Shown: positions 1 to 10,942 of the stretch, piece after piece
Numbering within the stretch: the stretch's first letter is position 1
How the letters are laid out: the number at the start of each line of letters is the position of its first letter
From: Candidatus Sumerlaeota bacterium
GTDB lineage: Bacteria > CG03 > SLGR01
Length of the DNA: 10,942 bases
Assembly (NCBI GenBank): GCA_007136585.1
Contig: SLGR01000161.1
Span: 1-10,942, forward strand
Direction of reading: 5' to 3'
Translations under genes and position numbers: made by a program
The notes under the pieces: model-generated
The model's input: the letters and a program-made list of their open reading frames with translations, nothing else
Databases searched by the model: none
What the model was told of the DNA's origin: nothing

Positions 1-11
1 AAAAATTTAAA

Positions 12-1208
12 ATGGCCGAGGAGATAATAAGGGTGATTCATAAAGCTACAGGTATACCTGACGCAGAGTACTCCAGGCTTATCAAACCTGAACTTTACAG
101 GACACTTCTGGATCAGCCGCAGAAAATTATAAAAAAAATATATATGTCCAAAAGTTCTCCCGAAGATACTCTCACAGCGCTAAAAGTTGTCGGGGTTAAG
201 CCTGAGATCATTTCGGAGATTAAAAACATTATACATTACCAGCCCGAAGTTGAAGACAGGCTTTTCTTATTGACGCATAAATGGAGGATTAGCGGACGTG
301 AAGCAGAGTACCTGAAACTCCTCAGTATGCGTCTTCCCTACGAGAAGAGGGCTGAAATAGAGCGTTTTCTTGATTCAGAAACGGGTTTTGCCGCCCTTAT
401 TGAGAGCGATCTCGGGGATATTGCTGCGGATCTCGGCATAGAAAGCATAAAACCCGGCAGAGTTTCATATTACAGAGATGGTATCCTGACCCTTGAGAGG
501 GGGCTCCTTAATAAACTGGGGCTTATGAGCCTTAATATGGAAGATAAGACCCTTATCAGGAAAATAATCGGAACCAAACTCGCCTACGAGAAGGCTTCGG
601 AAGCTGCCGCCGGGGATAAGCGCCTGCTGACCAGCCTCTATCTTTCAGAACTTGAGGATATCTCAATGAACCTGGAGGGCCTTGAGAGCGGTATTGACCA
701 TATAGCTCTTCCGCTTTTCACCGATCTTGTGCTTATGAGTGATAGTATGCTCCTTGGACCTGAGGAGCTGAGCCGCGACCTTGAGAAACTTATGAGCGGC
801 AGGGCGTACAGGAATATACCTGAGCCCGTAAAACGTGAGGTCATAGAGAGGATAACCTCCCTGAGCGTTATGCTGGGCGAGGCTATGATAATAGACCCGG
901 TAAGCCTGCCCGGGGCGGTATCACCTGAGGAGATATCATCTCTTGAGCAGGTAAGCGGCATAGGGCGTATTGTGAGGGCCATAGTAAATTACGGCTCGGA
1001 GTTCGTGGGTCTGACGATTCTTCCGGCGGGGCTTCCCTATGCCGGAAGGGGCCTTGACGCCTTCAGGCCTGAGTACCTGCTCCGGACAGGGTTTGAGGGC
1101 CGTATATACGCCTTTGTTGAGCGTATGAGGGTCTCTCTGGGATTAGGCGCCAGGAGCGATATGGCCCCTGAACTCGGCAAGATAGTAAACATACTCTACG
1201 CCAACTGA
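12..1208 (+). CDS. Hypothetical protein, possibly 5'-partial
   Basis: I do not recognise this 398-residue protein. It is acidic to neutral and largely helical by eye, with no signal peptide or clear membrane segment. The frame is open to the left edge (two sense codons precede the ATG), so it may be the 3' end of a longer gene. The ATG at 12 has no Shine-Dalgarno and follows an A/T-rich leader (AAAAATTTAAA), much like the start at 1426, which mildly supports it as a true start. Residues about 150-215 loosely recall an M48-type metallopeptidase core: Y-R-D-G-I-L-T-L-E-R-G-L-L, then I-I-G-T-K-L-A-Y where H-E-x-x-H would sit, then S-E-L-E-D. The zinc ligands are absent, so if the match is real the domain is inactive. 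It is followed by a regulated promoter region, so it is probably not in the same transcript as the genes downstream. Confidence 0.75.
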   Translation: MAEEIIRVIHKATGIPDAEYSRLIKPELYRTLLDQPQKIIKKIYMSKSSPEDTLTALKVVGVKPEIISEIKNIIHYQPEVEDRLFLLTHKWRISGREAEYLKLLSMRLPYEKRAEIERFLDSETGFAALIESDLGDIAADLGIESIKPGRVSYYRDGILTLERGLLNKLGLMSLNMEDKTLIRKIIGTKLAYEKASEAAAGDKRLLTSLYLSELEDISMNLEGLESGIDHIALPLFTDLVLMSDSMLLGPEELSRDLEKLMSGRAYRNIPEPVKREVIERITSLSVMLGEAMIIDPVSLPGAVSPEEISSLEQVSGIGRIVRAIVNYGSEFVGLTILPAGLPYAGRGLDAFRPEYLLRTGFEGRIYAFVERMRVSLGLGARSDMAPELGKIVNILYAN

Positions 1209-1425: not shown

Positions 1426-1992
1426 ATGAACTTAAAAGCAAGATACCAAATAAAGAGAGTTTTTTCACTGGGGCTTACGGCCTCTGTCTGTATAGTATTT
1501 ATAAGCTCGTTCTTCGCCTTCCGCGGGGAGACCCCCGGCCTTTACGACATATTCAGCGAGACGGTATCAGCGGCCTCCCCGGCCGCGGTAAACATAAACC
1601 TCGCCGTAAGCACCCGCGGTGAGACCGCCCCTTCCGGCGAGGAGACGGAGGAATCGGGCTATTACGGTCTTGTCTTTCTTCCCGGAAGCGTTACGGTCTT
1701 AAGCGCCGGCGCGGCTCTTGCGGCATTTCTCGGAGTGGTTTCAGCTGTACTGCTGGGAGCGGGGTTGCGAGGTTTTACGAAACGGGAGGTTTCACTTAAA
1801 GGGGTCTTGCGACATTACAGGTTGCGATCTCTTAAATTTCTGACTCCTATTCAAAAGAGGATGCTCTGTCTTTCGGAAATGTATGATACCAACCCTATAC
1901 TTGTAAGGGTCCGGGGGTCAAAACCCGTGTTCTGTCATAGGCGGAACACGGGTTTTTTCTTTAGCCCAGTAGCGAAGGGGGCAGCGCTGTGA
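1426..1992 (+). CDS. Small hypothetical protein with two predicted membrane segments
   Basis: This 188-residue protein belongs to no family I recognise. A basic N-terminus (K4, R6, K10, R11) precedes a hydrophobic segment at residues 13-32. An acidic, Ser/Thr/Glu-rich stretch of about 50 residues follows, then an Ala/Gly/Val-rich segment at 88-112 and a basic tail. This predicts a membrane hairpin with a short external loop. The ATG has no Shine-Dalgarno but lies just after an A/T-rich leader and a good -10 box. The stop overlaps the giant gene's GTG (GTGA at 1989-1992), implying coupling. The tail after residue 114 changes in base composition and includes an intrinsic terminator (codons 166-179), so the last ~75 codons may not be true coding sequence. 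The Ala-rich second segment resembles in style the hydrophobic stretches of the giant protein. Confidence 0.6.
   Translation: MNLKARYQIKRVFSLGLTASVCIVFISSFFAFRGETPGLYDIFSETVSAASPAAVNINLAVSTRGETAPSGEETEESGYYGLVFLPGSVTVLSAGAALAAFLGVVSAVLLGAGLRGFTKREVSLKGVLRHYRLRSLKFLTPIQKRMLCLSEMYDTNPILVRVRGSKPVFCHRRNTGFFFSPVAKGAAL
1921..1962 (+). terminator. Strong intrinsic terminator inside the end of the 1426 gene
   Basis: A perfect 12-bp stem (AAACCCGTGTTC at 1921-1932 with GAACACGGGTTT at 1944-1955) has an 11-nt loop and runs into TTTTTTCTTT. It lies 27 nt before the giant gene's start and within the open frame of the small upstream gene. It could end the small transcript, or act as an attenuator whose hairpin is blocked when ribosomes translate through it. 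A small hairpin just upstream (ACCCT 1892-1896 with AGGGT 1906-1910) and a GGGT/ACCC pairing (1915-1918 with 1923-1926) that would use the terminator's 5' arm fit a folding switch, but this is unproven. Confidence 0.75.
1975..1991 (+). promoter_or_regulatory. Ribosome binding site and GTG start of the giant gene
   Basis: AAGGGGG at 1975-1981 lies 7 nt before the GTG at 1989, the only purine-rich Shine-Dalgarno-like site in the window placed correctly for a start. An in-frame TAG at 1962-1964 limits how far upstream the gene can begin. The next in-frame options, GTG at 1998 and ATG at 2046, have worse spacing or would cut into the signal-like segment. Confidence 0.55.
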
Positions 1993-2087
1993 GTTTCGTG
2001 AATAGTTTTTACACGAAGCTGGTAAACGCCCTCCTTACGGGAGCGATGCTCTTTACCAGCGTAGCAGCCGACTTTTCCTACGCCTCC
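1989..2087 (+). other. Signal-peptide-like N-terminus of the giant protein
   Basis: Residues 1-33 have a short N-region with one lysine (K10), then a hydrophobic core L11-A27 (L-V-N-A-L-L-T-G-A-M-L-F-T-S-V-A-A), then a polar F-S-Y-A-S with small residues suited to cleavage near A32/S33. This suggests export across the inner membrane, or an uncleaved anchor. Confidence 0.55.
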
Positions 2088-5000
2088 AGGGTATCGGTCC
2101 CCGATTCGGCGCTTGATATACCCTTTGAGCTGGGTCAGGTTGTTGATGAGCATCTGACCCGGGGGCGGGCCCCTGAGGTTCTGCTTATAAAGGACCTTCA
2201 CGCCAACTACGAGGTACAGAAGAATATCCAGGAGATAATAGAGGCAGCCTCAGGAAGCGGACGTATAAAACGGATAGGAATGGAGGGAGACCCCGACGGC
2301 GAGGTGATAGATACCTCCATAATCTCTACAATCCCCAACGAAACGGTAAGGGAGAGGGTTCTTCAGTACTTTATGGAGAAAGGTATGATCCGGGGCCCCG
2401 AGGCCTACAGCGTTCTTAACCCGGACGCCGCGCCTCTCATCGGAATAGAGAACCCCGAACTTTACCAGAGGAACCTTGACGTTCTTCTCTCCTCGCTTAA
2501 CAACCGTGAGAATACTGTCCGTCACCTCCAGAGCATAAGGGAGATTTTACGCGAGCTTGAGAACCGGGCTCTCTCCTCGTCGTTAAGGAGGTTTCGGACC
2601 CATCACGCGCTCTACCGCCAGAATAACCTTTCGTCGGGTGTTTTTCACAGGTACCTGCGCGAGTGGGGAAAGGAGGCCGGGCGCCCTGTAAGGGTCATAT
2701 CCCCGGAGTATGCCAGGTATATGAAAGTTTCGGAGCGTCTCTCGGATCTTGACGAGCGTCGCCTGAGGAGAGAGTACGACCGGCTTGTAAGGAATATAAA
2801 CCCGGTTGATATGAGCGCTCTGGAGCAGTTCAGAGACATATTCCGGACCCCGGAGCCGATGTACGAGAGCATAGTCCGTCAGATAAACTCAGACAGCGCA
2901 TACTCCAACCTGAGGCAGTATATTGAGGCTATGGAGGAGATGAGGCGTATAAACACCTACCGTATAGTCAAGGAGGAGCAGAGGGTGATAGAGGAGATAG
3001 GCAGGGCCCTCTGCCGAAACGGGACTGAAGAGGACCTTCTCTTTGTATCGGATTACCTGCAGGTGATGACGAAGTTTCTCTTAAACCAGGTGACCCGCGA
3101 TGAGCTTAAGTACTTCCGTAAAAACTCAGAGAGGTTCAGGAAAAGTTTCAGTCGTCTTTCCGGGGAGTACGGGCGGCATATGAGCCGTCTTGACGGAATA
3201 CTGCATACGCTCTCGCCGTACGTGGAGGAGATGAGCGTATTCTACGACCTTGCGGAGAGAAGGGACGAGTATTTCGTAAAGAACTTTGCCGCAGACGAGC
3301 CGCAGCGCAACCGGACCTCTGTTATGATACTGGGAGGTTTTCATTCCGAGGGTGTGACGGAGCTTTTGAGGGAGAAGGGGATCTCCTACAGCCTTGTTCT
3401 GCCCCGGGTGACGGCCCACTCGTCGGAGATGATAGAGACCTACTACCGTCTCCTGCGCGGGGATAATATGCTTACCTACAACGAGCTTATAGACGAGCGC
3501 CTTGCGGTAAGCGCGATATTCGGGATGGATTTCTTCCCGATGCAGGCTACTCTTGCGAAAATGGCCGAACGTCTGGCATTTGAAATTAATGATGAAGGCA
3601 GGCAGCCTTCCAAGGAGGAGTTTGCGGAGATTGTTGCGGGAAGCTTCCGGAGCTGGGACGGAAATCCTGTAGAACATGAGTCAGTCTACGTAGAAGAACG
3701 TGGATGGGTGACGGAACTCTTTGTAAGGCTTACTTTCAGGAAAGACGGGTACTTTGAGGAAGTGACTGTCGGGTATGACGGGAGAAGGCTGCGCATAGTA
3801 AGCGAAGGCGAATCCAACCGCGAGTTTGAGGCTGCTATAGCCGGGGAACTGGCGCAGAAGGTCCAGGAAATACGGGATAATGAGGTTCTGAAAAACCTCA
3901 ATCCGAAAGCTATAGCAGTTCTTGCCGGGGTTGACCCGTTCGGACTCTTAGGAAGCGCTGCGGAGATATCGGTATCTGAGGTTGAGTCTGCCATATCCGC
4001 GGCGGGTTTTTCCGAGAGTGTGGAAGTATTGGAAGATGAAGACAGAGGGATGGTTTACATCTATAACCGGCAGGAACTTAGTAACCGGATTGCTTCAAAC
4101 AGGTTCCTCTCTGCTTACAGAGGCAGAGAGGTTGAAGAGGCGCTTCTGGAAGTTCTGAGGGAGTCCGAGAACGGCAGGGGTATGGAGGCCCTAAGGGCGC
4201 TTACGGGTTTTCCCTCGGGTATAACCGTTATGCTTGGTGAAGACCGCGGAGCGGAGCGGGACGGACGTTCCGCGGAAGAGCTTCTGCGTGAGGTCTCCGA
4301 TGAGGGGTTTGAGGAATTTCTGCGCGACGATTTACCCGAAGTTTCCGCCCGGATTCAGCGTGAACGCCGGCGCAGCAGGTTATCAAGAGTATTCAACAGG
4401 CGCACTGCGGCGCCTGTTGTAATCGCCTCCCTTGCGCTGGGCGGTGCGGCGTTAGCGGTATTTGGAACCGGGGCCCTTGCTACGGCCGGGACAGTCTCCG
4501 CTGCGCTGCTGGGAGCTGCGGCCCTGGGAACTCTTATCCGCCGGATATTTGCCGGGAGGCGTGATATTGCGCGGCGCCGCGAGTTCCGGGATTCACATAC
4601 GGAAGCCGCAAGATTATATAAGCATCAATCTGAATTCCACAGGAATTCTATTGAGGGATTTCCGGTACTTCCGGCTGAAATTTTCGGTACGAGTAAAGAC
4701 ACGGATATTGTTTCTGTTTTGGAAGAAGCCACAAAGGAAGTTACTGATGAAGATCCCCTGGTATCATTCCACGGTTCAATGACTTATACATTGGCTAATG
4801 ACGGAACTATTCAATGGAATCTTATTAACGATATTGATATTGAGCTTTATATTGACTCTTTTCCCAGGGGAGCTCGCGAATATTTTGAGAGGCTTTATAA
4901 GGTTTCTGGTAATATTGCTGAAAAATTAAGAGAAAAAGGTCTTAATGTTGAGGCTGAGGAAATAATTCCGTCAGATATGCCGTTTATCAAGCTGAAGCTT

Positions 5001-8000
5001 ATAACTTCAACAGGCCGGAAAATAGAAATAGATATTCAATTAAATGGGTATGATGTTCTGACTGAGAGCACGGATGATTACAGTTTTCATAATTACCAGT
5101 ACACAAAGTGGTATTTCGGAAATATTCAAGAGCTTGACGGGAGACTTGAATCTGCCGGCGCCTATGAGATTGCTCTTATTAATGCGGGTTCTTACAAAGA
5201 AAAGCTTGAGGAGGTTAAATTACTTGCTGAAACAGGAGAAATAACTCCTAAAATATTAAAACGGATATACCAGCTTGCCAGGATAAGAGGCCTGCACCAA
5301 GATGAAACATTTAGACCTCTTCCTGATAAATATGTTGAATTAAAGAATGAGGATATCTCTCCTCAGGAGCTTGAGGAATACATAAAGGATATCATAGTTA
5401 GACTTACTGTGACAACAGAAGATATCATAATTGAGTTTCTGGAAAAATATCATCCTGGTTCCGGTATCACGGCGGAAAATGTAAGGTCTCGTTTGAACAC
5501 TGTTCTTATCGAGGAACTGAGAAATATCGGGATAATGGAAGCAGGCCAGCAGGAAAAAATTATTGAATTTTACGGAAGAGACGCTGTTGCCTTAAGAGAG
5601 AGAATATCCAAGGTAAAGAATTTGATTGATGCCGTGAAAAGACATACCCCGGTAAAGTTTGACGAAGCGCATATTTATGAGATACTTCTTCTTTATGAAA
5701 CCCTGCCCCTGGAGAGTTTAACCGATGATCAGGCTAAAGCGGTAGCAGAAGCCCATGCGGTAGGTTTCGGCCCTATAGGCCATTATGAGTTTGGCGATAT
5801 TAGTAAGAAGGCCAGGATTTTAAGAGATAAAGGTTTTGACCGCAGGCAGAGAAGAATGGCCATAGAATCCGGGTTGGCCGGCCGTATGGATACTTATGAA
5901 ATACCGGCTCTTATCTGCCAGGATACCGGTCAGAAGCTTCTTGAAGGAAATATTTCCGGAACCTACGGAAGGGCAGAGGAAGCGCTTCTGTTTACAGAAG
6001 AAGAAAGGTATGCTTCAAGAAAACACTTTGAGATTATAGAGAGAGAGGGGATATTTTATATAAAGGATTTGGGTTCTAGTAACGGAACCGTTATAACTTA
6101 CGACGGCATCCGTACGAATCTTTTGAGGGAACCGGAAGCCGAATATCTACTGACTCCCGGAACCGTTATTGAGGCCGGAGGAAGAAAGATACTTTTCGGT
6201 ATTATTGAAGAAAGGGCTGAGCCGGATCCCTCGGTCAGGGAAGAAGTATTTGAGATTGGCCAGGAGTATACTGAATACGGTCACAGGATAAACGGGGGGC
6301 AGAGCGAGAGCCGCGCAGATCCGACTTCAAGAGAAGTAATAAAAGTAGACTGGGAAAACGATAAGGATCTTAGAGACCTGTATGAAAAGATTATTGGTAA
6401 ACTTGGCGGCAGAAGACCCGGTGAACTCACGGGTGACGAGAAAGGGCGGCTCCTGCAGGAGGTTTTCAATACTGTTAGGGAACATACAGAGTTTCCGTCC
6501 GATGAGGTTCTGCGTCAGTTTGAAGAAAAATGGAGGGGCCGGGATTATCCTGTAGGTAAAAGCCTTCTTTTCAGCGGCGAGAGCCCGGCGGTTGCCGTAT
6601 GCCGTCATATGGGCATTCTTTCGGCCGCGGTACTTGAGAGGCTCATAGAGCAGGGATATCTTTCCGGGAAGATTTTTTATGTAAGAGGCATAGGGCACGG
6701 TTGGGCTGTTTATAAGTCAAGCGGCGGTGACTTTACTGTTCTGGATATAGCTCAGAATAACTTTATTGACATGAGCAGTCCTGCAGCGATATATTCTATA
6801 GGAAAGTCTTTTCACAGGTATTTTGAGTTTTTTCCGGAAGAGGCCGCAGAACTGACTGATACGGGTTTAACCCGGAGAGTTGTTCCCTCCGAAGCCGGGA
6901 TTGCGAGAGATTTAGCTGATATAGGAATAACCAATGAAAATATTCAGCAGGAAATAATCTCCAAATACCGGGATAACCTGTATAATTTAACTGAAAGAGT
7001 ATCCCGGATTGAAGAAATACTTGATGCCCTGAAAGCCCATACTACCTCACCGTTTCGGGATAATGCAGACCTTGCCACTTTATTATTTGAGACTCTCCTG
7101 CAAGACCCCTCCCTTGATATAACTATTGTTAATGAAATATTGACGGCGTTTGAAGCCATAAAGTCAGAGTTCGGCATAACCTTAACCGAAGAAAGAAAAG
7201 CCGGGCTTCTTGAGTTGCTGTTGCTCTCTATTACCGAAGATAAACTTATTGAGTTTAAGAAAATAACTAATCTCGTTAATTACAGCGATAAAGAAAAAAT
7301 CAGACTTGTATTTGGCTTATTTTTTACTGAAGGCCGGCTTCTTGAGGAAAGGGACGATCCATTTATTTTAGAGGAGGATCCCGACAGGACACTTTATATA
7401 GCGGCAGATTTTAATCCGGGTGAAATAGAAAATGTGGAGGTTGTTGACCATCATAGGGAAGGGATGGAATACCTTTCCACAGCTACCACAGAAGCACTAT
7501 CTCAAAAAGACATTCTTCTGGAAAAATTTATGAAGGGAAGCTATGAGAACATTATAATTACCAGGAACCATACTGATGCCGACAGCGTTCTGTCCGAGAT
7601 GATGCTGCGGGGTTTATTTCCCACCCGGGAGTTAATTGAGAGGGCCGTAAAGACTTCCCAGTACTGTGATTATTTTTACTATGAGGGGATGGAGCATTAT
7701 ATAGAGCCAATGGTGCTAAACCTGAAGTTCAGAAACGAACCAGTGTCAAAACTTGAGGTTATTAAAGAAGTTGAAAACCCGAGCGACAGAAGTTACCAGA
7801 AATACAGTCAATATAATGATAAGCTTCTGAGACAAGCCCAAAGAATTAGAACTGAAGCCAATATATATGTAACAGGTAAAATAGCTGTAGTTGACCCGGG
7901 GTTCTCCGCTGACCCCGCAGCAGTATATCGCGTCTTGAGGGACAGAGATGTTGATGTAGCTGTCATTTATAGAGATAAATCCGGAGCGGAACTCGATGGT

Positions 8001-10942
8001 ATATACAGATATTCTGTTGGAACGGTTCCGGGAAGAGGAGCAGGGTATGATCTCTCTGAAGTATTCTCAATTTTAAACGAGCTTGAAGAAAACAGAGTCG
8101 CAGCCCTGCTTAGGACTCAGGAGCTACTGGCCGACGAGGTTGCAGGTGAAAAGCTAAAAGAGCTTTTAAACGAGATACAGATCTCACTTAAGCGCGGAGA
8201 GTTATGGTACGGCCGGAATTCGGTAATAGGCAGCCGCAACAGTCTTCTTCCCCCGGATACTGTAAGAGAGGCTTTGGAAGAACAATTCATGATAGATGAG
8301 AAGCCTCAGTATGCCTCTTCCTTGGGCGCGGCGGCGGTTTCCGCCGTTCAGGCATTTGCCGGGGCGGGCGCGGTATTACTTGCCGGGCTCTCGTTCTTCT
8401 CCGGTGTTCCGCTTATATCCGCCCTGTTTAACGTAGCTAAGACCATTCTATACCGGAGTGCTGTTCCCGGGGGCATAGCGGCCGAGGTTGTTGATGGGGA
8501 AGTAAAGATAAACCTTCCTGAGACCCATCCGCTTTACAAGGTTGCTCTCTTCCACGAGGCCGGACATCTTTTCCTTAACCGTTTCGGAATACCTAACTTT
8601 ATCCAGGAACTCATAATGCATTCAATTGATTTTATGGGTCTTCTCATTCCCAGGGAGCTGCTTAGCAGTATGGCAGGTCTGACCGAGTACTCTCCCGAAC
8701 ATATCCGGTTAAGGGAGGCTCTTTCCCGCGCAGGTATTGCGGAGTCAGCCCAGGATGGGATAATTAAAGATTATGAAGGAAGATATGAAGATTTAACAGA
8801 CCGTATATCCCTGGCTCTGGAAATTATAAAAGTCCTTCAGAAAACAACGGCTCTTCCTGATGAGTCTGTTTCCGCGTTAACCGAAAGGCTCCTCAGGCTT
8901 CCGGAAGAGGATTACCGGAAGATACTTGATACAGAAAAACCCGATGACACTACTGAAGCTTCATATGCCAGAATGGCCGGTTACGCCCTGCCCCTTATTT
9001 CAGTTTTCCCCGAAGAAATCACGGATGATATTATTATGGACAGGTTGCCGGGTGATATAACTCCGGGACATTCCACTCTTATAGGTCTCGACGACGGAAA
9101 ATTTATTGGGAAACTTACCAGAAAATCCGAAGAAGCTGTTGCAGATGAGCTTGGCTTCCTCCTCGGTAAGGTTCTCGGCATACCGGTTGTTTCAAACAGG
9201 GCCTTTAAACTCAGTGAATACGAGCAGATGCTGATAGTTGAAAAGACGGAGGATTTTTCTGAGATAATTCTGGTCAGCGAGCTGCTTGAAGGTAAAAAGG
9301 AGCTTGAAAATTTTGATGAGTTGAGCGGCGAGAACCTTGAACTCCTGAAAAAATCCGCGGTCCTGAGGGTTCTCCTGGGCGATTCAGATATGAAACACCA
9401 AAATTATGTCTATGATTCAGCAGGGCGGCTTTACGCTCTTGATTTCGGATTGGGGTCCGTTCTGAGCGATATAAGAGAACCCAAGGCCAACCTTATAGAA
9501 AGGGTTCCCTCGGAAATTTTAGAAGAGATGGAGTATGAAGATATAAGAGAAGTCCTTGAACTGCTAAATGGTCTGGATGAGAGTTTTCTTGAAGGGATAG
9601 CGCAGTCTTTTGTGGAGAGAGGTCTTCTTGAGTCCAGGGACGGGGATAATATGGCAGAGGTTCTTCGGGATAGGATCAAGGGGTTTGAAGGTCTGGATCC
9701 CGGATTATCGGATGCTTTTAAGGAAGTTCTGTCACGCAGGGAGCCCTCAGAAGAAATAATACCGGGGGAGGAGTATATAGATAAGCTTCTGGGTTACGGT
9801 TTCTCATCTGAAGAAGCAAAGACTATAATCAGCCTCTACTCTTCTACACAGGAACTTCTTGACAGGATATCGCAGATTGAGAAGATAATTGATCTTCTCA
9901 GGAAAGAAACCGGACCTCCCCTGGGTTTCGAAAACGAGGCGGTTTTCATGCGGGCTGCCTTAAGAGTACCGGAATTTAACCTCAGTCGGATAAGCAGCAG
10001 ATACGATTTTTTTGATGATCTGATACTTGAAGAACTCAGCACCCTGGCCCTCCGCCCCCTCAGAAGCAACGCCGTAATGCCTGAGAAAGCCGAAGAATGG
10101 ATATCTCTAAACACTAAAGATAAAAGAGCAGAAGACCTTGCTGAATTTATAGTTGAGAACATCACTCATATCTCACAGAGGGATTTTGAGAGAGCCCTTA
10201 GAGTAACTCTGGAAAGCTTTAAAGAAAGCGTCTCGGGAAGGCCCTATGCTGTAGTTGTTATGGGGCGCTATTCAAAGAGCGCAGGGTGGGTTCTGAGGCT
10301 TGCCGCCGATATGGGGCTGCTGGATATGGAAGGTGTTGAAATTATAGATGTTCACAGACCTGACGGGAAAGGGAAATGGCTGAGGCTGAGTGAAAAAGAG
10401 GGGATTAAAGATTTTCTTGTTTTAGACGACGCTTCTTATTCCGGAACCCAGATAGCCAAAGATATGATTAAGGGTAGCAGTGTGGCCTTCGGTGAAGGCG
10501 GGCTTAATATACACTTCGGGATACCTTTTATCACTTCCGCGGCCCGGGAAGAGATACAGAGGGAGGTTAAGAACCTTCAGAGCAAAGCTGAGTTTCATAG
10601 CGCCGAAACTATGAAATCCTTGCCTGAAATAGTTAGGGAAATATATTCTGATGACACGAATTTGGCGTTTTATTACCTTTCACTGATTGAAACATTCTGT
10701 GATACAGAGAGCCCCGCAGTTACAATATTTGACCACAAGGTCGCGGATAAGGTTTCACTTCCCGAGTTTTTAGAAGAAGGAAAATCAATACTTTCCTTCG
10801 TTGACGAAACAGTAAGATTCATACCCGTTACAGAACCTCCGTACAGGAAGCAGGTTTTTGATGATGAGATTTACGAACCTGTTACGCGCCGGGATGAGCC
10901 TCTTTACTCAAGGGCCCGGGGCGCAGCTGCGGTTTCCGCGGT
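1989..10942 (+). CDS. Giant membrane-associated multi-enzyme protein, 3'-partial
   Basis: A single frame stays open from the GTG to the right edge: at least 2,984 residues with no stop, and the C-terminus lies outside the window. Modules in order by residue: signal-like segment 1-33; ChaN/TraB-like domain 63-525; uncharacterised 526-805; hydrophobic hairpin 809-850; nucleotidyltransferase fold 925-1020; FHA 1310-1406; transglutaminase-like 1518-1595; DHH-like phosphoesterase 1798-2038; hydrophobic 2112-2155; HEAGH metallopeptidase around 2189; HipA/PI3K-like kinase 2358-2496; phosphoribosyltransferase-like 2752-2935; start of a third hydrophobic segment at 2978. A diverged ~45-residue repeat occurs four times between modules. 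Catalytic motifs are intact in most modules, so decay looks unlikely. Composition is GC-rich with GAG codons up to about position 4,600, then more A/T-rich with GAA, suggesting mosaic assembly. Giant proteins are known from Omnitrophota and a few other lineages. The function of this one is unknown; a secreted or envelope-anchored effector scaffold is one reading. Each domain call needs a profile search. Confidence 0.93.
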   Translation, partial: MSFVNSFYTKLVNALLTGAMLFTSVAADFSYASRVSVPDSALDIPFELGQVVDEHLTRGRAPEVLLIKDLHANYEVQKNIQEIIEAASGSGRIKRIGMEGDPDGEVIDTSIISTIPNETVRERVLQYFMEKGMIRGPEAYSVLNPDAAPLIGIENPELYQRNLDVLLSSLNNRENTVRHLQSIREILRELENRALSSSLRRFRTHHALYRQNNLSSGVFHRYLREWGKEAGRPVRVISPEYARYMKVSERLSDLDERRLRREYDRLVRNINPVDMSALEQFRDIFRTPEPMYESIVRQINSDSAYSNLRQYIEAMEEMRRINTYRIVKEEQRVIEEIGRALCRNGTEEDLLFVSDYLQVMTKFLLNQVTRDELKYFRKNSERFRKSFSRLSGEYGRHMSRLDGILHTLSPYVEEMSVFYDLAERRDEYFVKNFAADEPQRNRTSVMILGGFHSEGVTELLREKGISYSLVLPRVTAHSSEMIETYYRLLRGDNMLTYNELIDERLAVSAIFGMDFFPMQATLAKMAERLAFEINDEGRQPSKEEFAEIVAGSFRSWDGNPVEHESVYVEERGWVTELFVRLTFRKDGYFEEVTVGYDGRRLRIVSEGESNREFEAAIAGELAQKVQEIRDNEVLKNLNPKAIAVLAGVDPFGLLGSAAEISVSEVESAISAAGFSESVEVLEDEDRGMVYIYNRQELSNRIASNRFLSAYRGREVEEALLEVLRESENGRGMEALRALTGFPSGITVMLGEDRGAERDGRSAEELLREVSDEGFEEFLRDDLPEVSARIQRERRRSRLSRVFNRRTAAPVVIASLALGGAALAVFGTGALATAGTVSAALLGAAALGTLIRRIFAGRRDIARRREFRDSHTEAARLYKHQSEFHRNSIEGFPVLPAEIFGTSKDTDIVSVLEEATKEVTDEDPLVSFHGSMTYTLANDGTIQWNLINDIDIELYIDSFPRGAREYFERLYKVSGNIAEKLREKGLNVEAEEIIPSDMPFIKLKLITSTGRKIEIDIQLNGYDVLTESTDDYSFHNYQYTKWYFGNIQELDGRLESAGAYEIALINAGSYKEKLEEVKLLAETGEITPKILKRIYQLARIRGLHQDETFRPLPDKYVELKNEDISPQELEEYIKDIIVRLTVTTEDIIIEFLEKYHPGSGITAENVRSRLNTVLIEELRNIGIMEAGQQEKIIEFYGRDAVALRERISKVKNLIDAVKRHTPVKFDEAHIYEILLLYETLPLESLTDDQAKAVAEAHAVGFGPIGHYEFGDISKKARILRDKGFDRRQRRMAIESGLAGRMDTYEIPALICQDTGQKLLEGNISGTYGRAEEALLFTEEERYASRKHFEIIEREGIFYIKDLGSSNGTVITYDGIRTNLLREPEAEYLLTPGTVIEAGGRKILFGIIEERAEPDPSVREEVFEIGQEYTEYGHRINGGQSESRADPTSREVIKVDWENDKDLRDLYEKIIGKLGGRRPGELTGDEKGRLLQEVFNTVREHTEFPSDEVLRQFEEKWRGRDYPVGKSLLFSGESPAVAVCRHMGILSAAVLERLIEQGYLSGKIFYVRGIGHGWAVYKSSGGDFTVLDIAQNNFIDMSSPAAIYSIGKSFHRYFEFFPEEAAELTDTGLTRRVVPSEAGIARDLADIGITNENIQQEIISKYRDNLYNLTERVSRIEEILDALKAHTTSPFRDNADLATLLFETLLQDPSLDITIVNEILTAFEAIKSEFGITLTEERKAGLLELLLLSITEDKLIEFKKITNLVNYSDKEKIRLVFGLFFTEGRLLEERDDPFILEEDPDRTLYIAADFNPGEIENVEVVDHHREGMEYLSTATTEALSQKDILLEKFMKGSYENIIITRNHTDADSVLSEMMLRGLFPTRELIERAVKTSQYCDYFYYEGMEHYIEPMVLNLKFRNEPVSKLEVIKEVENPSDRSYQKYSQYNDKLLRQAQRIRTEANIYVTGKIAVVDPGFSADPAAVYRVLRDRDVDVAVIYRDKSGAELDGIYRYSVGTVPGRGAGYDLSEVFSILNELEENRVAALLRTQELLADEVAGEKLKELLNEIQISLKRGELWYGRNSVIGSRNSLLPPDTVREALEEQFMIDEKPQYASSLGAAAVSAVQAFAGAGAVLLAGLSFFSGVPLISALFNVAKTILYRSAVPGGIAAEVVDGEVKINLPETHPLYKVALFHEAGHLFLNRFGIPNFIQELIMHSIDFMGLLIPRELLSSMAGLTEYSPEHIRLREALSRAGIAESAQDGIIKDYEGRYEDLTDRISLALEIIKVLQKTTALPDESVSALTERLLRLPEEDYRKILDTEKPDDTTEASYARMAGYALPLISVFPEEITDDIIMDRLPGDITPGHSTLIGLDDGKFIGKLTRKSEEAVADELGFLLGKVLGIPVVSNRAFKLSEYEQMLIVEKTEDFSEIILVSELLEGKKELENFDELSGENLELLKKSAVLRVLLGDSDMKHQNYVYDSAGRLYALDFGLGSVLSDIREPKANLIERVPSEILEEMEYEDIREVLELLNGLDESFLEGIAQSFVERGLLESRDGDNMAEVLRDRIKGFEGLDPGLSDAFKEVLSRREPSEEIIPGEEYIDKLLGYGFSSEEAKTIISLYSSTQELLDRISQIEKIIDLLRKETGPPLGFENEAVFMRAALRVPEFNLSRISSRYDFFDDLILEELSTLALRPLRSNAVMPEKAEEWISLNTKDKRAEDLAEFIVENITHISQRDFERALRVTLESFKESVSGRPYAVVVMGRYSKSAGWVLRLAADMGLLDMEGVEIIDVHRPDGKGKWLRLSEKEGIKDFLVLDDASYSGTQIAKDMIKGSSVAFGEGGLNIHFGIPFITSAAREEIQREVKNLQSKAEFHSAETMKSLPEIVREIYSDDTNLAFYYLSLIETFCDTESPAVTIFDHKVADKVSLPEFLEEGKSILSFVDETVRFIPVTEPPYRKQVFDDEIYEPVTRRDEPLYSRARGAAAVSA
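2175..3560 (+). other. ChaN/TraB/EreA-like domain
   Basis: Residues about 63-525. A beta strand runs into L-L-I-K-D-L-H-A-N-Y-E (D69, H71), followed by I-G-M-E-G-D (E99). After a long charged helical insert comes V-M-I-L-G-G-F-H-S-E-G (H452) with L-L-R-E-K-G-I. An early His motif, a strand ending in E, and a late G-x-H-x-x-G-hhxLLxxxG segment are the hallmarks of the ChaN/TraB/erythromycin-esterase-like superfamily, whose members include haem-uptake proteins and metal-dependent hydrolases. The match is by motif order only. The helical insert at residues ~150-420 is unusually long, and the substrate is unknown. Confidence 0.45.
3561..4400 (+). other. Uncharacterised region of the giant protein
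   Basis: Residues about 526-805. It contains a beta-rich stretch near 575-600 (alternating charged and aromatic residues, as in F-V-R-L-T-F-R-K-D-G-Y-F-E), a hydrophobic A-I-A-V-L-A-G-V-D-P-F-G near 640, and acidic helices, ending in a very basic R-E-R-R-R-S-R-L-S-R just before the membrane hairpin. I recognise no catalytic motif. Confidence 0.5.
4413..4538 (+). other. First hydrophobic hairpin of the giant protein
   Basis: Residues 809-850 form 42 uncharged residues rich in Ala, Gly, Leu and Val, long enough for two membrane helices with a G-T-G turn. Strongly basic runs flank both sides (R-R-R-S-R-L-S-R before, L-I-R-R-I-F-A-G-R-R-D after). By the positive-inside rule this fits a hairpin with both ends in the cytoplasm, which conflicts with simple export of the whole chain. 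Confidence 0.65.
4761..5048 (+). other. Nucleotidyltransferase-fold domain (pol-beta superfamily)
   Basis: Residues about 925-1020. F-H-G-S (G929, S930) is followed after 17 residues by N-D-I-D-I-E-L (D948, D950), and the third acidic strand is K-I-E-I-D-I-Q-L (E1013, D1015). This is the G-S...D-x-D...D pattern of the pol-beta nucleotidyltransferase superfamily, with all metal-binding acidic residues present, so activity is plausible. Known members transfer AMP or other nucleotides to proteins, RNA or small molecules; the target here cannot be read from sequence. It lies just after the first membrane hairpin, where the gene's base composition also changes. It is followed by helical sequence leading to repeat copy A. 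Confidence 0.7.
5514..5648 (+). repeat. Inter-domain helical repeat, copy A
   Basis: Residues 1176-1220. This is one of four diverged copies sharing G-I about 6 residues in, I-I near 16-17, a Tyr near 20, E-R-I-S near 29-32, and I-D-A-V-K-R-H-T at the end. It aligns without gaps over 45 residues to copy B. It lies between the nucleotidyltransferase and FHA modules. Confidence 0.75.
5916..6206 (+). other. FHA domain
   Basis: Residues about 1310-1406. All signature residues of the forkhead-associated fold are present: Y-G-R (G1327, R1328), S-R-K-H (S1343, R1344, H1346), and D-L-G-S-S-N-G-T (S1363, N1365, G1366, T1367), then a strand I-L-F-G-I-I. In the family, the Arg and the Ser bind phosphothreonine and the Asn orients the peptide backbone, so this is very likely a working phosphothreonine reader. 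FHA domains commonly pair with Ser/Thr kinases, and a kinase-like module lies about 1,000 residues further along the same chain. This is the most secure domain call in the gene. Confidence 0.9.
6540..6770 (+). other. Transglutaminase-like (papain-fold) Cys-His-Asp domain
   Basis: Residues about 1518-1595. The candidate triad is A-V-C-R-H-M-G (C1538) at the start of a helix, G-I-G-H-G-W-A-V-Y (H1570, W1572), and F-T-V-L-D-I-A-Q-N (D1586). C-R-H at the head of a helix, an H-x-W strand, then h-L-D is the order of the transglutaminase-like clan, and the C-R-H start resembles the EDR1/CTR1-type peptidase-like subgroup. Members act as proteases, amidases or cross-linkers; the reaction here is unknown. 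It directly follows the FHA module and a charged linker and precedes repeat copy B. Confidence 0.65.
6909..7043 (+). repeat. Inter-domain helical repeat, copy B
   Basis: Residues 1641-1685. It aligns with copy A over 45 residues without gaps: D-I-G-I against N-I-G-I, E-I-I against K-I-I, T-E-R-V-S against R-E-R-I-S, and L-D-A-L-K-A-H-T against I-D-A-V-K-R-H-T. The two DNA sequences are well diverged, so this is not a recent duplication. It sits between the transglutaminase-like and DHH-like modules. Confidence 0.75.
7380..8100 (+). other. DHH-type phosphoesterase-like domain
   Basis: Residues about 1798-2038. V-V-D-H-H-R-E-G (D1820, H1821, H1822) is the name-giving motif, and N-H-T-D-A-D-S-V-L-S (H1861, D1863, D1865) matches the metal-binding H-x-D-x-D-x-h-x-S motif. 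A C-terminal segment, G-R-G-A-G-Y-D-L (2015-2022) plus L-N-E-L-E-E-N-R, could be a DHHA1-like substrate lobe. Family members hydrolyse phosphodiesters or pyrophosphate (RecJ, nanoRNase, cyclic-dinucleotide phosphodiesterases). In the canonical order H-x-D-x-D comes before D-H-H. Here it comes after, suggesting a circular permutation or a distinct subfamily. A search is needed to choose. Confidence 0.55.
8295..8348 (+). repeat. Membrane-module lead-in repeat, copy 1
   Basis: Residues 2103-2120 read D-E-K-P-Q-Y, four residues, then G-A-A-A-V-S-A-V. The same pattern returns at the right edge, where it begins D-E-P-L-Y and ends G-A-A-A-V-S-A. It marks the entry to a hydrophobic segment, so membrane modules in this protein appear to be reused units. 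Confidence 0.7.
8322..8456 (+). other. Second hydrophobic segment of the giant protein
   Basis: Residues 2112-2156 are almost uncharged for about 38 positions, Ala/Gly/Leu/Val-rich with F-F and F-S-G-V-P turns, then A-K-T-I-L-Y-R. It is long enough for two membrane helices. It directly precedes the HEAGH domain, a layout common in membrane-tethered metallopeptidases. Confidence 0.65.
8457..8700 (+). other. HEAGH zinc metallopeptidase-like domain
   Basis: Residues about 2157-2238. The strand-turn E-V-K-I-N-L-P leads into H-P-L-Y-K-V-A-L-F-H-E-A-G-H (H2189, E2190, H2193), the zinc-binding H-E-x-x-H helix with the catalytic Glu in place. The third ligand is not certain: E2207, H2211 or D2214 are candidates, and there is no metzincin H-E-x-x-H-x-x-G-x-x-H extension. 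The domain is short, and repeat copy C follows at once. It may cut the megaprotein itself, a membrane substrate or an external protein; the sequence does not say which. Confidence 0.6.
8718..8849 (+). repeat. Inter-domain helical repeat, copy C
   Basis: Residues 2244-2287, one residue shorter than A and B. Shared positions include A-G-I, G-I-I-K-D-Y, L-T-D-R-I-S, E-I-I-K-V-L and a closing T-T. It lies between the metallopeptidase and kinase modules. Confidence 0.65.
9060..9476 (+). other. Kinase-like domain (HipA/PI3K-type)
   Basis: Residues about 2358-2496. A glycine-containing loop and strand D-G-K-F-I-G-K-L supply a candidate ATP-binding Lys (K2375). E2387 in A-D-E-L-G-F-L-L-G-K-V-L-G-I-P-V fits the helix-C Glu, in the E-x-hhx-L-G-hP setting typical of HipA and PI3/4-kinases. 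The catalytic loop is L-L-G-D-S-D-M-K-H-Q-N (D2467, H2470, N2472) and the metal site is A-L-D-F-G (D2485). All core residues are present, so activity is plausible. Whether it phosphorylates protein or lipid is open. Helical sequence to residue 2590 may be its C-lobe. It could create phosphothreonine for the FHA module in the same chain, though this is only an inference. Confidence 0.65.
9783..9911 (+). repeat. Inter-domain helical repeat, copy D
   Basis: Residues 2599-2641, two residues shorter than A and B between the G-F turn and the D-R-I-S block. Shared blocks are G-Y-G-F, T-I-I-S-L-Y, L-L-D-R-I-S, and I-E-K-I-I-D-L-L-R-K-E-T. It joins the kinase and phosphoribosyltransferase modules. Confidence 0.7.
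10242..10800 (+). other. Phosphoribosyltransferase-like domain
   Basis: Residues about 2752-2938. The opening strand A-V-V-V-M-G-R-Y-S-K-S-A-G-W leads into a helix. The PRPP-loop motif is F-L-V-L-D-D-A-S-Y-S-G-T-Q (D2813, D2814, S2818, G2819, T2820), which matches the hhhhDDxxxSGxT pattern of type I phosphoribosyltransferases. A late conserved-looking block V-T-I-F-D-H-K-V-A-D-K-V-S (2910-2922) probably belongs to it. Enzymes of this fold move ribose 5-phosphate onto bases or, in some bacterial systems, act in regulation or modification. No base-binding hood can be identified, so the substrate is unknown. Confidence 0.6.
10893..10942 (+). repeat. Membrane-module lead-in repeat, copy 2 (cut by window edge)
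   Basis: D-E-P-L-Y, four residues, then G-A-A-A-V-S-A repeats the entry to the hydrophobic segment found 866 residues earlier. A third hydrophobic segment probably begins here and continues beyond the window, so further modules are expected downstream. Confidence 0.65.

What the first reader, a model, noticed from the sequence alone, without database searches (positions are those of the whole stretch)
1989..10942. A giant gene carrying at least eight different enzymatic or binding modules in one chain
One frame of at least 2,984 codons holds motif sets for ChaN/TraB-like, nucleotidyltransferase, FHA, transglutaminase-like, DHH-like, HEAGH peptidase, HipA/PI3K-like kinase and phosphoribosyltransferase-like domains, with membrane stretches between them. 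I know no described protein with this combination. The intact catalytic residues argue for selection on the whole chain. It could be a membrane-bound effector scaffold, possibly for contact with other cells.
Basis: partly seen in the sequence, partly recalled or inferred. Interest (0 to 1): 0.93.

Follow-up and report, generated by a model that had tools for sequence, protein, structure and literature searches.

The report
Shuffled multi-enzyme giant protein family
The long gene is real and is one of about eleven giant genes in this uncultured bacterium that share the same start and end pieces but carry different sets of enzymes in between, each apparently switched by a built-in transcription stop signal just ahead of it; what the proteins do is still unknown.

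Summary
Observation confirmed: one open frame, 1989-10940, 2,984 codons, no stop before the contig ends (the window is the whole contig). It belongs to a multi-copy family, not a one-off fusion. Members share (1) a head: signal-peptide-like N-terminus plus a domain predicted to have the TIKI/ChaN/erythromycin-esterase fold; (2) a variable middle of unrelated enzyme modules, several introduced by a recurrent ~80-residue helical linker (four copies here); (3) a conserved ~300-residue tail. Window ORF 3-1205 is the tail of a preceding giant gene. Head and tail occur in the same 4 of 16 genomes of the phylum; the tail has 11 places in this genome. Frames in a relative reach 13,409 codons. A small membrane-protein gene (1426-1992) overlaps the giant start by 4 nt. 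All 16 examined members of its family carry a stem in their 3' end (15 followed by a T-run), with compensatory changes, so the giant is probably under attenuation control. Best guess: exported multi-enzyme effectors; that function is inferred only. FHA and phosphoribosyltransferase have Pfam-level support, the head fold support; the other modules rest on conserved motifs, the transglutaminase on motif alone. Giant proteins are known in this clade; this architecture appears undescribed in the papers I could search.

The parts
3..1208 (+). C-terminal end of a preceding giant gene: linker remnant (residues 5-55) and conserved tail domain (nt 273-1205) ending ...NILYAN
   Evidence: tail profile E 6.4e-101 in the genome search (this sequence was in the profile); linker profile; 337 nt at 92% identity to the end of giant ORF C115
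1426..1992 (+). small membrane-protein gene (188 aa, two hydrophobic segments), member of a family found directly upstream of giant genes; overlaps the giant start by 4 nt (GTGA)
1920..1956 (+). intrinsic-terminator-like hairpin (17 pairs, -25.3 kcal/mol) followed by TTCTTT, inside the 3' end of the small gene; encodes its conserved P-x-F...GFF motif
1974..1981 (+). GAAGGGGG, ribosome-binding-site-like, 7 nt before the GTG start
   Evidence: sequence itself
1989..10942 (+). giant gene, 5' part (2,984 codons, no stop before the contig end; tail missing)
1989..2084 (+). signal-peptide-like N-terminus, ...DFSYA|S; the pattern [DN][YF]xxAxA is kept across most of the family
   Evidence: alignment A1
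2106..3419 (+). head domain (residues 40-477), TIKI/ChaN/Ere superfamily fold; D69, H71, E99, H452 invariant
4407..4538 (+). hydrophobic hairpin (residues 807-850) with strongly positive flanks
4596..5468 (+). nucleotidyltransferase-like module (residues 870-1160); low GC (37%, GC3 31%)
5517..5756 (+). helical linker copy 1 (residues 1177-1256)
5967..6173 (+). FHA domain (residues 1327-1395)
   Evidence: Pfam PF00498 E 1.3e-6; FHA hits across genomes
6249..6902 (+). transglutaminase/papain-like module, Cys1538-His1570-Asp1586, by motif only
   Evidence: sequence; no profile support
6912..7160 (+). helical linker copy 2 (residues 1642-1724)
7329..8303 (+). DHH-phosphoesterase-like module (residues 1781-2105) with motif order DHH then HxDxD
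8289..8708 (+). hydrophobic segment plus HExxH metallopeptidase-like module (residues 2101-2240)
8721..8954 (+). helical linker copy 3 (residues 2245-2322)
8961..9779 (+). kinase-like module (residues 2325-2597), D2465/D2467/N2472/D2485 kept in a paralogue
9786..10019 (+). helical linker copy 4 (residues 2600-2677)
10095..10592 (+). phosphoribosyltransferase-like module (residues 2703-2868; homology extends to about 2975)
   Evidence: Pfam PRTase-CE E 6e-6

Best explanation
The gene encodes a member of a polymorphic family of giant, probably exported, multi-enzyme proteins. Shown: members are built as constant head (signal-like N-terminus + TIKI/ChaN-like domain), variable middle, constant ~300-residue tail; an ~80-residue helical linker precedes several modules and travels with them (linker+PRTase, linker+DHH); modules are reshuffled between paralogues; a small membrane-protein gene with a conserved embedded terminator hairpin lies immediately upstream. 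Inferred: the head and tail carry the protein to or through the envelope; the middle is a payload of enzymes that act on protein, nucleotide and nucleic-acid substrates in another cell, perhaps released by the metallopeptidase modules found in many members; head and tail stay fixed because they serve delivery, the middle varies because it faces changing targets. A transcript of the giant that starts upstream must read through the hairpin (there is little room for a promoter between it and the start codon), so expression of this costly gene is probably gated by attenuation coupled to translation of the small gene, or by an antiterminator.
For: Head in 4/16 phylum genomes and tail in the same 4/16, tail absent from the other genomes of a 386-genome sample. 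Head and tail in one ORF: a complete 1,089-codon G001:C2 gene and three nearly complete ones of 2,246-4,454 codons. Linker: leave-one-out recovery of each window copy at 17-33 bits against at most 3.4 bits in 100 shuffles; present in giants of three genera. Shuffled modules. Payload diversity by Pfam: PPDK, adenylate kinase, GH130, protein kinase, calcineurin phosphatase, methyltransferases, topoisomerase IB, gyrase C-terminal repeats, SNF2 helicase, PLD, M48, ABC1 kinase, CheR, FHA. Head fold: ChaN Z 9.5, EreC 8.8, HopBA1 8.3, BcR135, RRSP, PMT, most of which PMC6254334 lists as TIKI superfamily; the H71-E99 spacing of 28 equals BcR135 H85-E113 and RRSP H3902-E3930. Small gene and hairpin.
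Against: No expression, localisation or activity data. Most members are cut by contig ends, so full architectures are rare. The head fold rests on a model of mean pLDDT 76.6 with moderate Z; Foldseek alone gave no match at E<=0.001. The charge pattern around the 807-850 hairpin would by the positive-inside rule put both flanks in the cytoplasm, which fits poorly with an exported chain. No secretion system was tied to these genes. ATP- or DNA-dependent payload enzymes would equally suit a cytoplasmic protein.
Confidence: 0.45

Rival explanations
1. Polyprotein: the chain is cut by its own or partner peptidases into separate enzymes that work for the cell itself, the giant frame being a way to co-express and co-export them.
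For: HExxH motifs in many giants, of several unrelated kinds (M48); linkers between modules would suit cleavage sites.
Against: No processing site shown; several giants carry no HExxH motif; topoisomerase, SNF2 and PPDK modules have no evident job outside the cytoplasm.
Confidence: 0.2
2. Cell-surface or periplasmic scaffold/adhesin for attachment or predation, as proposed for giant ORFs of Omnitrophota, with the enzyme modules mostly structural or acting at the surface.
For: Signal-like N-terminus, hydrophobic segments, LysM-like stretch in G001:C41 read by eye; precedent in PMC10066038.
Against: No adhesin or carbohydrate-binding domain of the kinds named there appeared in the scanned members; catalytic residues are conserved between homologous modules.
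Confidence: 0.2
3. Cytoplasmic or conflict-system giant (polyvalent-protein-like) of mobile-element origin.
For: Polyvalent proteins also mix metallopeptidase, nucleotidyltransferase and SNF2 domains (PMC5512222); PRTase-CE, by my own recollection of its name, comes from conflict systems.
Against: No match in phages, plasmids, PHROGs or PADLOC, and none to the head in viral contigs; the few neighbours examined look chromosomal; signal-like N-terminus.
Confidence: 0.08
4. Near-neutral accretion: domains accumulate in a tolerant giant frame without a joint function.
For: Extreme variety of domains and a strong mosaic of GC3 (0.66 in the head, 0.31 in the nucleotidyltransferase).
Against: Conserved active-site residues, constant head, tail, linker and hairpin; at least 119 kb of a 1.88-Mb assembly is spent on the family.
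Confidence: 0.07

Closest known systems
Giant ORFs of Omnitrophota, Elusimicrobia and CG03 (PMC10066038; PMC12057145; PMC11573180)
   Same: very long frames in related uncultured bacteria, membrane segments, suspected role in contact with other cells
   Different: those reports stress adhesin or carbohydrate-active domains and poor conservation; here there is a constant head and tail, a linker, a TIKI-fold domain and a coupled small gene
Gigantic multi-enzyme Omnitrophota proteins with Skillet-clade lipocone domains (PMC12419801)
   Same: many unrelated enzymes, peptidases and transmembrane segments in one chain; proposed to act on prey
   Different: lipocone domains were not tested for here; that paper describes no shared head, tail or attenuator in the passage read
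MARTX toxins
   Same: constant ends around a variable block of effector domains; a TIKI-family domain occurs in one effector (PMC6254334)
   Different: no RTX-type repeat match in 173,780 residues and no cysteine-protease domain hit; no evidence of toxicity
Polyvalent proteins of phages and conjugative elements (PMC5512222)
   Same: metallopeptidase as a recurring module, many enzymatic domains per chain
   Different: signal-like N-terminus, no phage or plasmid match
TIKI/EreA/ChaN superfamily
   Same: predicted fold and three of four catalytic residues with the same H-E spacing
   Different: sequence not matched by a corresponding Pfam model; first Glu of 2His/2Glu is Asp; large helical insert

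Membership tests
TIKI/EreA/ChaN superfamily (head domain) | parallel beta-sheet core fold shared by ChaN, BcR135, HopBA1, RRSP, PMT | tested here: met
   AlphaFold2 model whose best matches outside helical bundles are members of this superfamily, Z 9.5 to 6.3 over 140-186 residues; moderate Z, so fold level only
TIKI/EreA/ChaN superfamily (head domain) | 2His/2Glu active site | tested here: inconclusive
   H71, E99, H452 invariant in 13 sequences, H-E spacing 28 as in BcR135 and RRSP; the first Glu is an invariant Asp69
TIKI/EreA/ChaN superfamily (head domain) | hydrolase activity | not testable with these tools
   needs purified protein
Giant ORFs of Omnitrophota and relatives | single frame longer than 20 kb | tested here: met
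   not for the truncated window (8.95 kb), but for family members in G003: 9,921, 11,855 and 13,409 codons, each still open at one end
Giant ORFs of Omnitrophota and relatives | sequence homology to the described Omnitrophota giants | not tested
   the genome-contig scan with the head gave only records labelled Elusimicrobia/Elusimicrobiota; the published giants were not fetched
Polyvalent proteins | encoded by phages, prophages or conjugative elements | tested here: not met
   no match in phage or plasmid records or PHROGs for the window protein, none to the head in viral contigs
MARTX toxins | RTX repeats and inducible cysteine protease domain | tested here: not met
   no such Pfam hits in the scanned members, no GGxGxDx[LIVF] match; most members are truncated
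Polymorphic toxin systems (CDI/Rhs type) | variable toxin at the C-terminus with adjacent immunity gene | tested here: not met
   the C-terminus is a conserved part; immunity genes not searched
Transcription attenuators / intrinsic terminators | GC-rich stem followed by a T-run, upstream of the regulated gene | tested here: met
   15 of 16 small-gene family members against 1 of 94 other ORF ends, compensatory pairs
Transcription attenuators / intrinsic terminators | termination and conditional read-through | not testable with these tools
   needs transcription assays

The most novel reading that the evidence does not exclude
A new polymorphic delivery system: giant chains with fixed head and tail that carry interchangeable linker-enzyme cassettes into other cells, each locus gated by a terminator hidden in the coding end of a co-translated small membrane protein.
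Probability: 0.25. Interest if true: 0.88.

Novelty: new variant of a known kind. Interest (0 to 1): 0.7.

Why it matters
Giant bacterial genes have been catalogued but are hard to assign because few domains are recognised and architectures look unique. A constant head, tail and linker give handles for finding all members, bounding the gene, and cutting the chain into testable pieces; the embedded terminator gives a direct, testable handle on how such a costly gene is switched. The catalogue of payloads (kinases, nucleotidyltransferases, topoisomerase, SNF2, peptidases) would, if delivered, be a large new source of effectors acting between microbes.

Tried and rejected
Chance frame or assembly artefact: rejected, because homologous long frames occur in separately assembled relatives. 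Same module order elsewhere: not found; the modules are reshuffled. Phage or plasmid origin: no match in phages, plasmids, PHROGs, PADLOC or (head only) viral contigs. Profile searches of head, tail, PRTase, DHH and nucleotidyltransferase alignments against PDB sequences gave nothing convincing; the nanobody hits for the PRTase were taken as chance. A joint alignment of TGase-DHH-zincin-kinase for one fold job was misaligned by partial rows and was dropped. The DHH model is poor (pLDDT 50, pTM 0.45, best Z 4.4); its hit list is rich in RecJ, Cdc45, NrnA, GdpP and family II pyrophosphatases, which is a hint only. More homologues of the kinase and DHH modules were sought in 16 and 386 genomes; only the one homologue of each already known came back above noise. 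Extending the contig: no other contig shares its 3' end. Rfam: no match. The transglutaminase call remains motif-only.

Full report
WHAT IS THERE. The window is a complete 10,942-nt contig of an 88%-complete, 1.88-Mb genome in 257 contigs. A single frame runs from GTG 1989 to the contig end, 2,984 codons without a stop. The start looks right: the first residues align with those of homologues in other genera, a GAAGGGGG motif lies 7 nt upstream, and the start overlaps the stop of the preceding ORF as GTGA. ORF 3-1205 is open at its 5' end.

THE FAMILY. A whole-protein search in the own genome gave 14 places, most in other very long frames. Relatives of the same order have the same kind of gene; public records of these relatives are labelled Elusimicrobia bacterium. 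In G003 frames of at least 9,921, 11,855 and 13,409 codons occur, two of them head to tail.

HEAD. Residues 1-550 form the shared N-terminal unit: a hydrophobic signal-like stretch ending in a [DN][YF]xxAxA pattern and a domain with invariant D69, H71, E99 and H452. No corresponding Pfam model matches. An AlphaFold2 model from 13 sequences (mean pLDDT 76.6, pTM 0.68) aligns to ChaN (Z 9.5, 186 residues), EreC (8.8), HopBA1 (8.3), BcR135, RRSP and PMT; a helical-bundle group (TTYH) ranks among them by the helical insert alone. A paper on RRSP lists PMT, HopBA1, BcR135 and ChaN as structural relatives in the TIKI superfamily and names the 2His/2Glu residues (PMC6254334). The window's H71 and E99 have the same spacing of 28 as H85/E113 of BcR135 and H3902/E3930 of RRSP; the residue two before the first His is Asp, not Glu.

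TAIL. ORF 3-1205, and the ends of many other giants, share about 300 residues that close with a C-terminal motif such as NILYAN, HILYAK, NIKHAL. It is in 4 of 16 phylum genomes, the same four that carry the head, with 11 places in the own genome and 12 in G001, and in no other of 386 sampled genomes. No convincing Pfam or PDB match. Head and tail sit in the same ORF in a complete 1,089-codon gene (G001:C2) and in three nearly complete ones. So the window holds the end of one giant gene and the beginning of the next.

LINKER. Four divergent copies of an ~80-residue segment, predicted helical from its sequence pattern (no structure was computed for it), occur at residues 1177-1256, 1642-1724, 2245-2322 and 2600-2677. 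Each is recovered by a profile of the other three at 17-33 bits, against at most 3.4 bits in 100 shuffles. The same segment is found in giants of G000, G001 and G003, and travels with the module behind it: linker+PRTase in three other giants, linker+DHH in G003:C53.

PAYLOAD. FHA is certain (Pfam). The PRTase-CE hit is just under the curated cut-off (26.8 against 27 bits) but has four homologues with shared motifs. Nucleotidyltransferase, metallopeptidase, kinase and DHH have homologues in other giants with the active-site motifs kept. In the DHH module DHH (1820) comes before HxDxD (1861-1865), the reverse of the usual order as I know it; the structure model is too poor to confirm a permuted fold. 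The transglutaminase call rests on Cys1538/His1570/Asp1586 alone. Other members carry quite different enzymes: PPDK, PEP-utilising domain, calcineurin phosphatase, methyltransferases, protein kinase, adenylate kinase, GH130, gyrase C-terminal repeats, ASCH, topoisomerase IB, HHH, SNF2/helicase, HD, PLD, starch synthase, VanW, ABC1 kinase, M48, CheR, FHA. Some of these members are identified by tail, head, linker or module; a few (for example G003:C25 second ORF) also by lying next to another giant.

SELECTION AND COMPOSITION. Head against the C161 paralogue: dS 0.48, dN 0.099, so purifying selection on the head. For PRTase and kinase, pN/pS is 0.5-0.6 but dS is near saturation, so this is weak. 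GC3 falls from 0.66 in the head to 0.31 in the nucleotidyltransferase, consistent with modules of different origin.

SMALL GENE AND HAIRPIN. A ~190-residue protein with two hydrophobic segments (two predicted in the window copy) precedes most heads whose upstream region is present; it often overlaps the giant start by 1-4 nt. Within its 3' coding end lies a terminator-like hairpin (window 1920-1956). Of 14 members first examined, 13 have the hairpin with T-run; the fourteenth keeps the stem without one. Among 96 control ORF ends 3 were positive, but 2 of these are themselves members of the small-gene family by the earlier profile search. That makes 16 stems, 15 with a T-run, against 1 of 94 other ORF ends. 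The regrouping of those two was made after seeing the result, though on an independent criterion; without it the count is 13 of 14 against 3 of 96. Stem positions 4-6 show compensatory pair types (hand-anchored alignment, one row in a shifted register, and the sequences are related). The conserved P-x-F...GFF of the protein is what the two arms and the T-run encode, so RNA structure may explain that conservation. Because the hairpin ends about 30 nt before the giant start, a transcript of the giant that begins upstream must read through it. Attenuation is inferred, not shown.

COMPARISON. Giant ORFs are known in Omnitrophota, Elusimicrobia and CG03 (PMC10066038, PMC12057145, PMC11573180), and gigantic multi-enzyme Omnitrophota proteins have been proposed to act on prey (PMC12419801). 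I found no description of this head-linker-tail family or of its embedded terminator in the library; preprints, including the main survey of giant genes cited by those papers, are not held, so absence of a description is not established.

VERDICT. The finding is stronger as a family than as a single odd protein. Structure of the family: confident. Export: plausible. Delivery into other cells: a guess worth testing.

Noticed in passing
window 1920-1956: Terminator-like hairpin inside the coding end of the small gene, conserved with compensatory changes across its family; it encodes the protein motif GFF at that end.
   Followed up: yes
window 270-693 and L004 10402-10825: The tail of the upstream giant is 92% identical over 337 nt to the tail of another giant (C115) while the rest differs; the C20/C150 and C24/C243 tails are also near identical, which suggests recombination or gene conversion between tails.
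   Followed up: partly
L116 9188-10348, L042 449-1564, L044 3657-4796: A ~380-residue signal-like protein, with weak RHS-repeat hits in two of the three, lies upstream of the small gene in three loci.
   Followed up: partly
L031 14779-15916: Two small-gene paralogues in tandem before one giant gene in G003.
   Followed up: no
L042 (G001:C41), giant residues about 985-1010: LysM-like sequence directly after a hydrophobic segment, read by eye.
   Followed up: no
window 7446-7584: DHH motif precedes HxDxD, a reversed order that may mean a circularly permuted DHH phosphoesterase.
   Followed up: partly
L056 8142-9836: A stand-alone 565-residue relative of the head domain in a genome of another phylum.
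   Followed up: no
L112 (G001:C140) residues 695-840 and 2549-2689: Two copies of the hydrophobic segment plus HExxH module within one giant protein.
   Followed up: partly
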